Below, piece after piece: positions 17,400-33,476 of a stretch of DNA of 64,000 nt. The position numbers and the translations under genes are program-made. Source of the stretch: a virus. Positions within the stretch are counted from its first letter, which is position 1, and every line of letters starts with the position of its first letter. The notes beneath the pieces are model-generated. The model saw only the letters and a list, made by a program, of their open reading frames with translations, was not told where the DNA came from and ran no database searches. The stretch is from positions 1-64,000 of IMG/VR virus record IMGVR_UViG_3300046542_000312; one strand, given 5' to 3'.

Positions 17400-17690
17400 A
17401 TGACCACACCAAAGGCAACTGCATCCAAGCTGTTCCGCGTCCTCAAGAAGATCCACGCAGAGATTGTGGAGCTAAAGGAGGAAGGACTCCAGGAGATGCT
17501 CGCCGAACTGAACGAGGCCTTCGATGACAAGTCGGAGAAGTGGCAGGACAGCGAGAAGGGTGCGAAGTTCCGGGAGGACATCGACACCATTGAATACTTC
17601 GAGGAGATCCTCGGACAGATCGAGAGCGCCTGCATCGAGGGAGCTGAACAGCTTCAGTCCTGCGACATCGAGGCCGATCTATACGCATAA
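17400..17690 (+). CDS. Hypothetical small acidic protein
   Basis: 96 residues from the ATG at 17400 (AAGGAGAG upstream). Highly helical and acidic (KLFRVLKKIHAEIVELKEEG, EEILGQIESACIEG). First gene of the plus-strand early-type block. No family recognised. Four bases after its stop begins the first hammerhead-like motif. Confidence 0.6.
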   Translation: MTTPKATASKLFRVLKKIHAEIVELKEEGLQEMLAELNEAFDDKSEKWQDSEKGAKFREDIDTIEYFEEILGQIESACIEGAEQLQSCDIEADLYA

Positions 17691-17693
17691 CCA

Positions 17694-17752
17694 ACCGCCT
17701 GATGATGACCGACTGGCCTCGGTCGAAACGCTCTCTATGAGGGCGTCGCGGT
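17694..17752 (+). ncRNA. Hammerhead ribozyme-like motif 1 (type I)
   Basis: Stem I ACCGC (17694-17698) / GCGGT (17748-17752). Core CTGATGA (17699-17705) plus one extra T. Stem II GACCGA/TCGGTC with loop CTGGCC. GAAA at 17725-17728. Stem III is seven pairs (17729-17735 with 17739-17745), then TC, predicting cleavage after 17747. Loop TGGC can pair with GCCA at 17754-17757. All conserved hammerhead core bases are present; the extra T after A9 is a known tolerated position in some variants. Confidence 0.65.
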
Positions 17753-17797
17753 AGCCAACCAACGCCCGATCCCGCCGGGCCAGCAAAGGATACGAAC

Positions 17798-17989
17798 ATG
17801 AGCATCGAGAAGAAGAGACAGGCCGTAGCCGAGGGTTCCGTCGTTGCGTTCCGCAAGGGCAAGGAGGCCGTCTGGTATGTGGTCACCAGCACCATCGGAA
17901 AGTTCGGGATCGTCTACCGTGAGGAAGGCACGAGCAACGCCGAGCAGGTCATCGACCGCTGCTATATCGAACAGGTACGAGCCGCCTGA
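17798..17989 (+). CDS. Hypothetical small protein
   Basis: 63 residues, beta-rich (EGSVVAFRKGKEAVWYVVTS), resembling a small SH3-like fold but not identifiable. AAAGGATACGAAC precedes the ATG. Its TGA stop lies inside the CTGACGA core of the second hammerhead-like motif. Confidence 0.6.
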   Translation: MSIEKKRQAVAEGSVVAFRKGKEAVWYVVTSTIGKFGIVYREEGTSNAEQVIDRCYIEQVRAA

Positions 17990-18041
17990 CGAGTCCTTTG
18001 GCGAGGACGAAACCGGATCTCTTCGGAGGTTTGGTAGCGGT
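17981..18041 (+). ncRNA. Hammerhead ribozyme-like motif 2 (type I, near-perfect)
   Basis: Stem I GCCGC (17981-17985) / GCGGT (18037-18041). Core CTGACGA (17986-17992) with no insertion. Stem II GTCCT/AGGAC with loop TTGGCG. GAAA 18009-18012. Stem III has nine pairs (some G-U) closed by a TTCG tetraloop (18022-18025), then TA, so cleavage is predicted after 18036. Loop TGGC faces GCCA at 18043-18046. The stop codon of the upstream gene is within the core. Confidence 0.8.
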
Positions 18042-18092
18042 AGCCAACCACAGGGAGCGTTCCACTGACCGCCGTTCCCGGAAAGGATCATC

Positions 18093-18332
18093 ATGATCAG
18101 CAGCAAGACATTCGCCCGCTACATGGAGCGGCATCACGCGGAGCCTTTCGAGGAGGAAGGCCTCGACTACACCTTTACGGTATGGACGGCGGGAGAGGAC
18201 GAGGTAGGACAGGTGTCACACAGCCACCTCAACGGCTCCGTCGAATACCACCTGCGCGGACCGGCGCTTGCCGAGTTCGAGAAAAGCAGGGAGGCCGCAA
18301 GGCTGAACGGCTGGATCGGAGGTGTGGCATGA
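18093..18332 (+). CDS. Hypothetical small protein
   Basis: 79 residues (begins MISSKTFARYMERHHAEPFE), with a beta-rich middle (YTFTVWTAGEDEVGQVSHS). GGAAAGGATCATC precedes the ATG. It overlaps the next gene by ATGA. No family recognised. Confidence 0.55.
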   Translation: MISSKTFARYMERHHAEPFEEEGLDYTFTVWTAGEDEVGQVSHSHLNGSVEYHLRGPALAEFEKSREAARLNGWIGGVA

Positions 18333-18535
18333 CGGCGTCGTGGGCAACCATCAGTCACATGCGAAAGCTGGACGGACTGGCTTCCACTCCATCGTGGATG
18401 GGGAGCATCGCGATCGATCTCGAAGAGGACGGTCTCATGCGCTACTCAGACGGAGTGTGGTCTATCACCCTAGAGGGACACGAGTTCATCTTCCTCAATG
18501 AAGAGGGTGTTCTCCTTGAAGATGACGAGGCGTAG
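18329..18535 (+). CDS. Hypothetical small protein
   Basis: 68 residues starting at the ATG that overlaps the previous stop (18329). Contains DGVWSITLEGHEFIFLNEEG, a beta-rich acidic C-terminus. It is translationally coupled to its upstream neighbour. Confidence 0.55.
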   Translation: MTASWATISHMRKLDGLASTPSWMGSIAIDLEEDGLMRYSDGVWSITLEGHEFIFLNEEGVLLEDDEA

Positions 18536-18684
18536 ATGGGATCGCCGCTCCTCGCCTCAGGCTCGTCACTGCGGGAACGCTCCGCCATCGACGACTTCGC
18601 CGAAACATACGAAGGGCGGTATCTGGCCGACCTTCCGTCAACGACACACACCGCTTTCTACCGGATGCCGGAAAGGAACACGAC

Positions 18685-18888
18685 ATGGCCTTCGACTACG
18701 CAGCACACCTCAAGGCGGCCTACGACCACAGGGCCGCATGCGAATCCTTCGTCATCACTGGCGGGCCGGATCTCATCATGGCTCGTCAGCGTCTGGAGGA
18801 GATAGGCCACCTGCCGCGCGGGACATGGGGGTATCTCGAAGCCGAGAGCCTCCGCCGCAAGCTTCACGACTACAAGCAAGCCGTCTGA
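18685..18888 (+). CDS. Hypothetical small helical protein
   Basis: 67 residues (MAFDYAAHLKAAYDHRAACE...), helical. GGAAAGGAACACG precedes the ATG. Its TGA stop is the TGA of the CTGAAGA core in the third hammerhead-like motif. Confidence 0.55.
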   Translation: MAFDYAAHLKAAYDHRAACESFVITGGPDLIMARQRLEEIGHLPRGTWGYLEAESLRRKLHDYKQAV

Positions 18889-18939
18889 AGATGACGCTAT
18901 GGCAAGCGTCGAAACCCTGAGGAAAGGCAGGGTCACGGT
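18880..18939 (+). ncRNA. Hammerhead ribozyme-like motif 3 (type I)
   Basis: Stem I GCCGT (18880-18884, with one G-U) / ACGGT (18935-18939). Core CTGAAGA (18885-18891) plus an extra T as in motif 1. Stem II GACGCT/AGCGTC with loop ATGGCA. GAAA 18911-18914. Stem III CCCTG/CAGGG, then TC, so cleavage is predicted after 18934. Loop TGGC can pair with GCCG at 18941-18944 (one G-U). The upstream stop codon is inside the core. Confidence 0.7.
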
Positions 18940-18988
18940 AGCCGGACAAACTGACTATCATCAACGCGAACCACAGGGAGAACCAACC

Positions 18989-22386: not shown

Positions 22387-23439
22387 ATGATCGACACGCT
22401 CTCCCAGTCCAGCATCAAGCCTTCGACCGTCGCCGAGATCATCGCCGCCGTCGTCGATCGCAACATGCGTCTCGCAGACGTCGGTTCCGGCAAGGAGCCG
22501 CTCACGCCCTACATCGTCGGCGACCCCGGCATCGCCAAGACTTCCGTCGTCCGGAAGGTGGGCCACACCATGGGGCTGGAAGTCCGCACGCTCATCACGG
22601 CGCAGTACGATCCGGCCGTTCTCGGCGGCTTCCCGATCGTGTCCGCGGACAAGGGTACGGTCAGGCGCGCACGTGCGGAGGAACTGCCATGGGAAGGACG
22701 CGGGATCCTGTTCCTCGACGAGCTGCCGCAGGCATCTCTGGCCGTCCAGAACATCGTGGCGCAGCTCATCCAGGAGCATCGCATCGGCCCGACGGTCATC
22801 CCTCCGACGTGGTCCATCATCGCCGCAGGCAACAAGCCGTCCAACCGTGCAGGCACCACCACGATCCCCTCCCATCTCCGGGGCAGGCTCATGTTCCTCT
22901 ACATGGAGCCGGACATCGACGAGTGGCTGGAATACGCCGTGGAGGCGGATGTCGCCGCGGAGATCGTCGGCTACCTCAGGTACCGCAAGGACTTCTTCCA
23001 CAAGTTCGAGACCACCGCCGACGGTCAGCGCAACCCGCGTAGCTGGGAGAAGTCCAGCGAGATCATCGCTCTCAGGCTGTCTCCGCTGGCCGAGCAGGCG
23101 GCTCTGACGGGTGTTCTTGGTGTTGCTGGCGGCGGAGATCTTGCGGGCTTCCTCCGGCTCTACAGGGAGCTTCCGTCGATCGAGGAGATCCTGTCGAACC
23201 CGCGCGGTGCCAGACTGCCCGTCCAGCCTCAGGTGGCATACGCCTGCGCGGCCGCTCTCGCCCGTGCCGTTGACGCAGGCAACATCGACCGGGCGATCAC
23301 GTATCTGGACCGCATCGGCAAGAACGACATCAAGACCTTCGCCCTGAACGACGCGCTCCTGCGCAATCCGGGAACCGTGCAGAACAAGGCGATGGCCGAG
23401 TGGATCATGAACTACCGCAAGCAGAGGAGCGTCGCATGA
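22387..23439 (+). CDS. MoxR-family AAA+ ATPase
   Basis: 350 residues. Walker A GDPGIAKTS at 45-53, Walker B ILFLDEL at 107-113, sensor region IIAAGNKPSN and the arginine-rich SHLRGRL block, as in MoxR/CbbQ-type ATPases. These act as chaperones with a VWA partner that binds metal and client protein. The partner is encoded two genes downstream (24558). The ATG follows ACAAGGATTCATC, an SD fused with a GANTC octamer. The next gene overlaps by ATGA. Confidence 0.85.
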   Translation: MIDTLSQSSIKPSTVAEIIAAVVDRNMRLADVGSGKEPLTPYIVGDPGIAKTSVVRKVGHTMGLEVRTLITAQYDPAVLGGFPIVSADKGTVRRARAEELPWEGRGILFLDELPQASLAVQNIVAQLIQEHRIGPTVIPPTWSIIAAGNKPSNRAGTTTIPSHLRGRLMFLYMEPDIDEWLEYAVEADVAAEIVGYLRYRKDFFHKFETTADGQRNPRSWEKSSEIIALRLSPLAEQAALTGVLGVAGGGDLAGFLRLYRELPSIEEILSNPRGARLPVQPQVAYACAAALARAVDAGNIDRAITYLDRIGKNDIKTFALNDALLRNPGTVQNKAMAEWIMNYRKQRSVA

Positions 23440-32300: not shown

Positions 32301-33476
32301 ATGGACATCAACATCGAGATCAAGGGCGACCGCCCGCACCACGACCCCATTCCGGGCGTGAAGATCGTCTGGTCAAAGAAGAGCCAGAAGTTCTACTACT
32401 ACGACCAGGCCACCAACAAGCCGATCACCGGATCCCCGGACACGTGGGAGTTCCGCGCGGCCATGAAGACGGCGGCGTCGACCACGGTCAAGGAGATGAT
32501 CGACCAGTACCGCCTGAGCACCGACTACAGGAAGCTGAAGTCGTCGAGCAAGATCACAAAGGACAGGGAGCTCATGCTCATCGAGGAGCGGTTCGGCGAG
32601 CGTCCGATCGACAGTGTCACGCGCTCCGACATCAACCAGGTCTACGACATCGAGCTGGGAGACCGTCCCGGTAGAATGGTCTCCTTCCTTGCCGCCGCCA
32701 AGGCTGTCTGGAACCACGCCATCGTCAACGAGAAGACTATCATCAACCCGTGCAACACCTTCAAGCGTCCGAACCTCGGAAGCCTCAAGGCATGGCCGGA
32801 ACATCTCATCCAGCCCGCGCTCGACAGCCTGCCCGAACATATGCGCGACATGTGCGTGCTGGCTCTATACACCGGACAGCGCTACTCGGATCTACGCGCC
32901 ATGCTGTGGACTGACTTCGACCCCAAGGCGCGAACGATCAAGGTCGTACAGGAGAAGCTGTTCAAGGAAGGCGAGGACGAGGGAGACAAGGTTCTTGAGA
33001 TTCCATGCCACGACAAGCTCTACTCTTACCTGATGAAGATGCCCCGGAAAGGCCCGTATATCTGCATGACAAGCACATGCAAGCAGTGGCCCCAGAACGG
33101 CCAGTTCGCTGGCAACCTGAACCGACTGTTCTCGAAGACGGCGATGAAGGGCTACTCGATCCACGGACTGCGCAAGACCGCCGCCAAGCGTCTCGCCGAC
33201 GTCGGCTGCTCGGCCCACCAGATCATGTCGATCACCGGCCACTCGACCCTCGCCGAGGTTCAGCGCTACACCCGCGGCTTCAGCCAGAAGAAGGCGTCGC
33301 AGGAAGCCATGTCGATGCTCCAGGGCAAGCAGCACCAGGACATCGTCGAGGCGCTCCCGAAGAACCTGTTCGAGCGCAAGGCGGCCCTTCTGGCACTTCT
33401 AGCGGAAGTTGAATCCGCAGAGGCCGAGCAGGGTGAATACGAAGTCCCGCTCGAAACTGTCAGAGAGCTGATTTGA
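32301..33476 (+). CDS. int: Tyrosine recombinase (phage integrase)
   Basis: 391 residues. SAM-like core-binding region at about 60-150, then a catalytic domain with R194 (TGQRYSDLR), H288 and R291 (HGLRKT), H314 (TGHSTL) and nucleophile Y323 (RYTRG). All of R-H-R-H-Y are present. It would integrate phage DNA at an att site. The adjacent 280-bp gene-free stretch is rich in short repeats fitting attP. Length is usual. Confidence 0.9.
   Translation: MDINIEIKGDRPHHDPIPGVKIVWSKKSQKFYYYDQATNKPITGSPDTWEFRAAMKTAASTTVKEMIDQYRLSTDYRKLKSSSKITKDRELMLIEERFGERPIDSVTRSDINQVYDIELGDRPGRMVSFLAAAKAVWNHAIVNEKTIINPCNTFKRPNLGSLKAWPEHLIQPALDSLPEHMRDMCVLALYTGQRYSDLRAMLWTDFDPKARTIKVVQEKLFKEGEDEGDKVLEIPCHDKLYSYLMKMPRKGPYICMTSTCKQWPQNGQFAGNLNRLFSKTAMKGYSIHGLRKTAAKRLADVGCSAHQIMSITGHSTLAEVQRYTRGFSQKKASQEAMSMLQGKQHQDIVEALPKNLFERKAALLALLAEVESAEAEQGEYEVPLETVRELI

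What the first reader, a model, noticed from the sequence alone, without database searches (positions are those of the whole stretch)
17694..18939. Three serial hammerhead ribozyme-like motifs separate tiny early genes
At 17694-17752, 17981-18041 and 18880-18939 the plus strand can fold as a type-I hammerhead with every core element: CTGANGA, stem II, GAAA, stem III, then TC or TA before stem I. The second has no deviation and a TTCG tetraloop; the first and third share one extra T after A9. Each would cut the mRNA between two small genes. Hammerheads are known in phages, but serial copies punctuating one operon are unusual. An RNA-processing system for early mRNA is inferred.
Basis: partly seen in the sequence, partly recalled or inferred. 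Interest (0 to 1): 0.95.

Follow-up and report, generated by a model that had tools for sequence, protein, structure and literature searches.

The report
Three hammerhead ribozymes between phage genes
A bacterial virus genome carries three intact self-cutting RNA motifs (hammerhead ribozymes) in the gaps between very small genes, a layout already reported in other bacterial viruses, and comparison with hundreds of relatives suggests they cut one long message into separate messages right where each upstream gene stops.

Summary
Three complete type I hammerhead ribozymes (HHRs) lie on the + strand with predicted cleavage after 17747, 18036 and 18934, and nothing comparable occurs elsewhere in the 64 kb. 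Rfam misses them at gathering threshold. A covariance model built from viral relatives (and from two of the three) scores them 68.7, 57.9 and 32.8 bits, against 12.2 for the next match. The relatives show strong base-pair covariation and a loop II-3' tail pseudoknot. The extra U after A9 is common in the family. The record is a probable temperate phage (integrase, terminase, T5-A1-like DNA transfer protein). Serial HHRs flanking phage genes are not new: Perreault et al. 2011 described them and showed cleavage of a triple array, so this is a new member of a known kind. Two regularities, not found in the literature I could search, bear on the open question of function. Upstream genes stop immediately before the ribozyme or at the UGA inside its CUGANGA core (2 of 3 here). 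In many relatives the released 5' end can re-pair with a covarying downstream complement that excludes stem I; this is weak in the window. I infer co-transcriptional mRNA punctuation, possibly gated by the terminating ribosome. Nothing was tested biochemically.

The parts
17400..17690 (+). ORF1, 96 aa, first gene of the + strand block; TAA stop 8 nt before the ribozyme core
   Evidence: the ORF listing with start moved to the ATG behind an SD-like AAGGAG; 111-aa ORF matches phrog_4068 (unknown function) at E 8.5e-6
17694..17752 (+). Hammerhead ribozyme 1 (type I), extra U after A9, cleavage after C17 = 17747
   Evidence: 68.7 bits
17753..17758 (+). 3' tail AGCCAA whose GCCA can pair with loop II UGGC of ribozyme 1 (pseudoknot)
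   Evidence: sequence; loop II-tail pairing statistics in 308 relatives
17798..17989 (+). ORF2, 63 aa; its UGA stop is U4G5A6 of ribozyme 2
17981..18041 (+). Hammerhead ribozyme 2 (type I), canonical core, UUCG loop on stem III, cleavage after A17 = 18036
   Evidence: RF00163 21.2 bits; 32.8 bits
18037..18073 (+). Leader released by ribozyme 2; GCGGU at its 5' end can re-pair with a downstream ACCGC (alternative to stem I)
   Evidence: RNA.fold of the leader; family test
18093..18332 (+). ORF3, 79 aa
18329..18535 (+). ORF4, 68 aa, start overlaps the ORF3 stop (ATGA)
   Evidence: sequence
18685..18888 (+). ORF5, 67 aa; its UGA stop is U4G5A6 of ribozyme 3
18880..18939 (+). Hammerhead ribozyme 3 (type I), extra U after A9, cleavage after C17 = 18934
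   Evidence: 57.9 bits
18989..19399 (+). ORF6, 136 aa, first gene after ribozyme 3
   Evidence: with start moved to the ATG behind AGGGAG

Best explanation
Three self-cleaving type I pseudoknot hammerhead ribozymes punctuate the start of a polycistronic phage transcript. Each folds and cuts as it is transcribed, separating the upstream gene from the next one. The upstream mRNA then ends in two stable hairpins (stems II and III) with a 2',3'-cyclic phosphate about 50 nt past its stop codon, and the downstream mRNA starts with a 5'-OH leader of about 50-56 nt. The likely purpose is to make short mRNAs with nuclease-resistant ends and independent lifetimes. Because the upstream stop lies at the edge of stem I or inside the core, a terminating ribosome should hold the ribozyme unfolded, so cleavage is probably coupled to upstream translation. 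Shown here: sequence, structure, covariation and stop-codon position. Known chemistry of the class: cleavage and end groups. Inferred: activity of these copies, mRNA stabilisation, ribosome gating.
For: Three complete HHRs and none by chance. Only three matches of the model in the window, with a wide score gap. Pair covariation in relatives. In pattern-fetched loci where only core, stem I and tail were required, stems II and III are present in all but three of 22 loci, two of which are copies of one sequence. 387 hits in 257 loci against 0 in 3.59 Mb of reversed sequence. Loop II-tail pairs of 4 or more Watson-Crick bp in 190 of 308 HHRs, swap mean 60. HHRs lie on one strand within loci; only one locus has both strands. 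Stop codon at -13..-7 or at the core UGA in 195 of 262 upstream-distinct HHRs, against 84 of 1475 random positions. Frame test 86 / 26 / 26. Next start at median 42 nt after cleavage. Published cleavage of serial phage HHRs in vitro and in E. coli (PMC3088659).
Against: No biochemical test of these copies. The pseudoknots are short (4-5 bp with G-U), and in a published case shortening the pseudoknot from 6 to 4 bp cut the rate about 20-fold (PMC3088659, bimolecular construct). Stop-codon docking could reflect genome compactness alone. mRNA stabilisation is untested; 5'-OH RNAs can also be degraded.
Confidence: 0.8

Rival explanations
1. The ribozymes act as regulated switches: cleavage destroys or activates a transcript depending on ribosome traffic on the upstream gene or on a competing downstream strand, so their purpose is control of expression ratio, not generation of stable mRNAs.
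For: The stop codon sits inside the core or abuts stem I. In many relatives the released 5' strand has a covarying complement downstream that excludes stem I (CCGC follows GCGG in 69/106 against 4/28 for GTGG; CCAC follows GTGG in 18/28 against 27/106; Fisher 1.3e-6 and 2e-4).
Against: The alternative hairpin is weak or absent in two of the three window copies. The fast HHR rates known for the class would often cut before a ribosome arrives.
Confidence: 0.3
2. The motifs are intact but serve only to be compact 3'-end hairpins or passive intergenic spacers spread with gene cassettes; self-cleavage is incidental.
For: Stop codons abut the motifs, as expected in compact phage genomes; gene content around HHRs varies (PMC3088659).
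Against: The catalytic core is invariant while the helices turn over by compensatory change, which indicates selection on catalysis.
Confidence: 0.1
3. Chance or DNA-level repeats that happen to resemble hammerheads.
For: The three copies share direct repeats in stem I and tail, GTCGCGGTAGCCAACCA.
Against: Stems II and III differ entirely in sequence between copies yet pair; zero hits in shuffled and reversed controls; covariation in relatives.
Confidence: 0.02

Closest known systems
Clustered hammerhead ribozymes in prophages (Perreault et al. 2011, PMC3088659), above all the triple array around ardA in Agrobacterium tumefaciens
   Same: Several HHRs on one strand flank single small genes of a phage transcript; many use a stem I-stem II pseudoknot; serial copies proven to cleave in vitro and in E. 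coli. HHRs of the window's type (GCGGUAGCC tail) occur here in Rhizobium, Sinorhizobium, Mesorhizobium, Shinella, Hoeflea, Aminobacter and Gellertiella genomes, the same bacterial order as Agrobacterium (from my own knowledge).
   Different: Different phage and different flanking genes. Stop codons and an alternative product hairpin are not mentioned in that paper's main text.
Rfam RF00163 Hammerhead_1
   Same: Type I topology, core, stems
   Different: All three below the gathering cutoff (34 bits); copies 1 and 3 carry an extra U after A9, a form found in 179 of 308 relatives (insert is T in 167)
Pseudoknot-containing hammerhead (crystal structure, PMC11300833)
   Same: Loop II pairs with the strand beyond helix I
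   Different: Window pseudoknot is 4-5 bp, that one is 6 bp; three-dimensional structure of these copies not determined

Membership tests
Hammerhead ribozyme, type I | Invariant core CUGANGA ... GAA(A) ... UH with A15.1-U16.1 closing stem III | tested here: met
   one extra U after A9 in copies 1 and 3, shared with many relatives
Hammerhead ribozyme, type I | Three helices I, II, III around the core, stem I open | tested here: met
Hammerhead ribozyme, type I | Covariation of helices across homologues | tested here: met
   99.7% paired, covariation score 0.695 against 0.208; sequences had been preselected by a pairing descriptor, so partly circular
Rfam RF00163 at its curated threshold | Reaches the gathering score of 34 bits | tested here: not met
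   best 21.2 bits against 34. The structural features that define a type I hammerhead are complete, so I read this as a sensitivity limit of the model and not as a missing feature
[quoted passage not shown]
   loop II UGGC can pair with tail GCCA/GCCG, 4-5 bp with G-U; predicted only, and short compared with the tested 6-bp case
Hammerhead ribozyme, type I | Self-cleavage after H17 leaving 2',3'-cyclic phosphate and 5'-OH | not testable with these tools
   needs in vitro transcription
Serial phage hammerhead arrays (Perreault 2011) | Two or more HHRs on one strand flanking genes of a phage | tested here: met

The most novel reading that the evidence does not exclude
Phage hammerheads are translation-docked, self-capping mRNA punctuation. 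The ribozyme supplies the stop codon of the upstream gene, so ribosome and ribozyme compete for the same RNA. In many phages the cut 5' end then snaps into a hairpin that replaces stem I and the pseudoknot, making cleavage irreversible and sealing the new 5' end.
Probability: 0.3. Interest if true: 0.8.

Novelty: new member of a known kind. Interest (0 to 1): 0.5.

Why it matters
[quoted passage not shown] The arrays collected here have regular geometry: stop codon at the ribozyme, next start about 40 nt after the cut, up to 16 copies in one phage. They also show two covarying interactions. Together these turn the open question into simple mutational tests (move the stop codon, break the product hairpin, kill the core).

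Tried and rejected
ATPase (22387-23439) as a bait for close phage relatives: none found. Terminase large subunit: only relatives at about 40% identity, no syntenic phage. blastn of the region against GenBank phages: no match. Order-wide search of host genomes with the model scored only 33 of thousands of candidates per genome and is uninformative. Type II/III descriptors in the window: nothing. A fourth ribozyme in the ORF4-ORF5 gap: not found by descriptor or model. Intrinsic terminators or sigma-70 promoters between the genes: no excess over shuffles. Considered that the upstream proteins' C-terminal Ala-Ala, imposed by stem I (30 of 118 end in AA, 34 in PA), is a degradation tag: not testable here. 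PHROG annotation of genes in the 16-ribozyme array: the call failed on a wrong frame and was not repeated.

Full report
WHAT IS THERE. On the + strand, copy 1 reads ACCGC-CUGAUGA-U-GACCGA(cuggcc)UCGGUC-GAA-ACGCUCUC(uau)GAGGGCGU-C|GCGGU. Copy 2 is GCCGC-CUGACGA-GUCCUU(uggc)GAGGAC-GAA-ACCGGAUCUC(uucg)GAGGUUUGGU-A|GCGGU. Copy 3 is GCCGU-CUGAAGA-U-GACGCU(auggca)AGCGUC-GAA-ACCCUG(aggaaagg)CAGGGU-C|ACGGU (| marks the predicted cut). All core positions of a type I hammerhead are present. A strict descriptor finds these three and nothing else on either strand, with a mean of 0.0 hits in 200 random sequences of the same dinucleotide make-up. Minimum free energy folding, which knows nothing of hammerheads, returns the three-way fold for each copy. 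Copy 3 even replaces C-G by U-A at the core end of stem I.

RFAM. At gathering cutoff nothing is reported; only copy 2 is seen at relaxed threshold, 21.2 bits against 34. I built a model from 23 viral copies, two of them from the window. It gives 68.7, 57.9 and 32.8 bits, next best 12.2. Copies 1 and 3 were in the model; copy 2 was not.

RELATIVES. A pattern asking only for the core, a CCGC/GCGG stem I and the GGTAGCC tail drew 22 viral loci. Stems II and III, not asked for, are present in all but three of the loci, two of which hold the same sequence. Three further stem I variants and a general pattern brought the set to 387 hammerheads in 257 loci. The reversed sequences (3.59 Mb) contain none. 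On the 23-sequence alignment 299 cells pair at 99.7%, with 72 double changes against 19.3 in shuffles and a covariation score of 0.695 against 0.208; sliding the partner by any of 1-3 columns destroys it. These sequences had been selected for pairing, so the independent evidence is the stems found in pattern-only loci and the absence of hits in controls. The extra U after A9 is a family trait: an inserted base in 179 of 308, U in 167. Loop II pairs with the tail behind stem I: 190 of 308 have 4 or more Watson-Crick pairs against 60 when tails are swapped. In the window this is UGGC with GCCA (copies 1 and 2) or GCCG (copy 3, one G-U).

SERIAL ARRAYS ARE KNOWN AND COMMON. Perreault et al. 2011 (PMC3088659) state that multiple hammerheads often flank single genes or short gene blocks in prophages, propose processing of long phage RNAs into gene-length mRNAs, and show cleavage of a triple array from Agrobacterium tumefaciens in vitro and in E. 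coli. Here, 72 of 258 locus strands hold two or more strict type I copies, and one phage record (46 kb, G001) holds 16 copies in about 8 kb. The window is one more case. The terminase bait did not fetch the array-bearing records, so the arrays are not confined to one close phage lineage.

CONTEXT. The record is a 65,259-base viral contig with a terminase, portal, T5-A1-like DNA transfer protein and major head protein on the - strand and an ATPase, HNH nuclease, exonuclease and integrase on the + strand. The ribozymes sit at three junctions among the first six genes of the + strand block. None of these proteins has a firm family. Rhizobiales genomes carry hammerheads with the same tail, which hints at an alphaproteobacterial host but does not prove it.

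STOP-CODON DOCKING. ORF2 and ORF5 end with the UGA that is U4G5A6 of ribozymes 2 and 3; ORF1 ends 8 nt before core 1. In the family, of 262 hammerheads with distinct upstream sequence and a called upstream frame, 84 use the core UGA as stop and 111 have the stop at -13 to -7 relative to C3, abutting stem I. At random positions on the same strands only 84 of 1475 have a stop in that range. Frames open for 80 or more codons up to the ribozyme number 86 in the UGA frame against 26 and 26 in the others. Frames were called by length, not by a gene finder, so single assignments can be wrong: ORF5 in the window was missed by the automatic rule. The next start lies at a median of 42 nt after the cut, and about 50-56 nt after it in the window. 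Spacing is therefore tight upstream and looser downstream. Compactness may explain the upstream side; ribosome gating is the more interesting reading and is untested.

PRODUCT HAIRPIN IN RELATIVES. In 169 of 309 hammerheads the first bases after the cut can form a hairpin of 4 or more Watson-Crick pairs with a loop of at most 12; shuffled tails give 27.9. The complement changes with stem I. After reduction to 171 distinct tails, CCGC follows GCGG in 69/106 but GTGG in only 4/28, and CCAC follows GTGG in 18/28 against 27/106 (Fisher 1.3e-6 and 2e-4). The smaller ACGG and GCAG groups show it weakly (4/15 and 1/10). One phage (L022) has GTAGC..GCTAC, CAGC..GCTG and GGGA..TCCC in the same array. 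This hairpin uses the 3' strand of stem I and often the bases of the pseudoknot, so it cannot coexist with the active ribozyme; the natural reading is product release and 5' end sealing. The window's own subfamily (UAGCC tail) shows it in 11 of 31. Of the window copies only ribozyme 2 has a clear candidate, GCGGU..ACCGC, enclosing another helix. I therefore do not claim it for this locus.

MECHANISM. Shown: intact hammerheads, their placement, family covariation, stop-codon docking. Established for the class: cleavage after H17 with 2',3'-cyclic phosphate and 5'-OH. Inferred: co-transcriptional processing into short mRNAs with structured ends; coupling to translation.

LITERATURE LIMITS. Eight full-text searches over open-licence papers found no report of stop-codon docking or of the product hairpin, but only titles and abstracts of most hits were seen, and subscription papers and preprints are mostly not held, so 'not described' is provisional.

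VERDICT. Observation confirmed, interpretation supported, kind already known. Value lies in a clean new example and in two family-wide regularities that make the function testable.

Noticed in passing
L392 (G001:C1:14000-27000), 16 places at G001:C1:16716-24785: One 46 kb phage record carries 16 type I hammerheads on one strand in about 8 kb; for the 12 found by the strict descriptor, the next start lies 31-46 nt after each cut.
   Followed up: partly
Family of 309 HHRs, e.g. L022, L031, L049, L120, L150: The 5' end released by cleavage has a covarying complement just downstream (often GCGG-NNNN-CCGC, GNRA-like loops), an alternative to stem I.
   Followed up: yes
L298, L306, L360, L255 and others: Type II and type III hammerheads occur in the same fetched viral contigs as type I copies, so arrays mix topologies.
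   Followed up: no
window:17989 and 18888; family-wide: Where the core UGA is the stop codon, stem I dictates the last residues of the upstream protein, mostly PA, AA, TA or SA; a C-terminal Ala-Ala could matter for proteolysis.
   Followed up: partly
window:18043-18057 and 18966-18980; 18078-18090 and 18668-18680: Leader sequences repeat between junctions (GCCAACCACAGGGAG, CCGGAAAGGATCA), including the ORF4-ORF5 gap, which has no ribozyme; possible relic of a lost copy.
   Followed up: no
window:6568-8268 (-) and 32301-33476 (+): T5 A1-like DNA transfer protein (phrog_1745, E 2e-157) in a phage that also has an integrase, an unusual combination.
   Followed up: no
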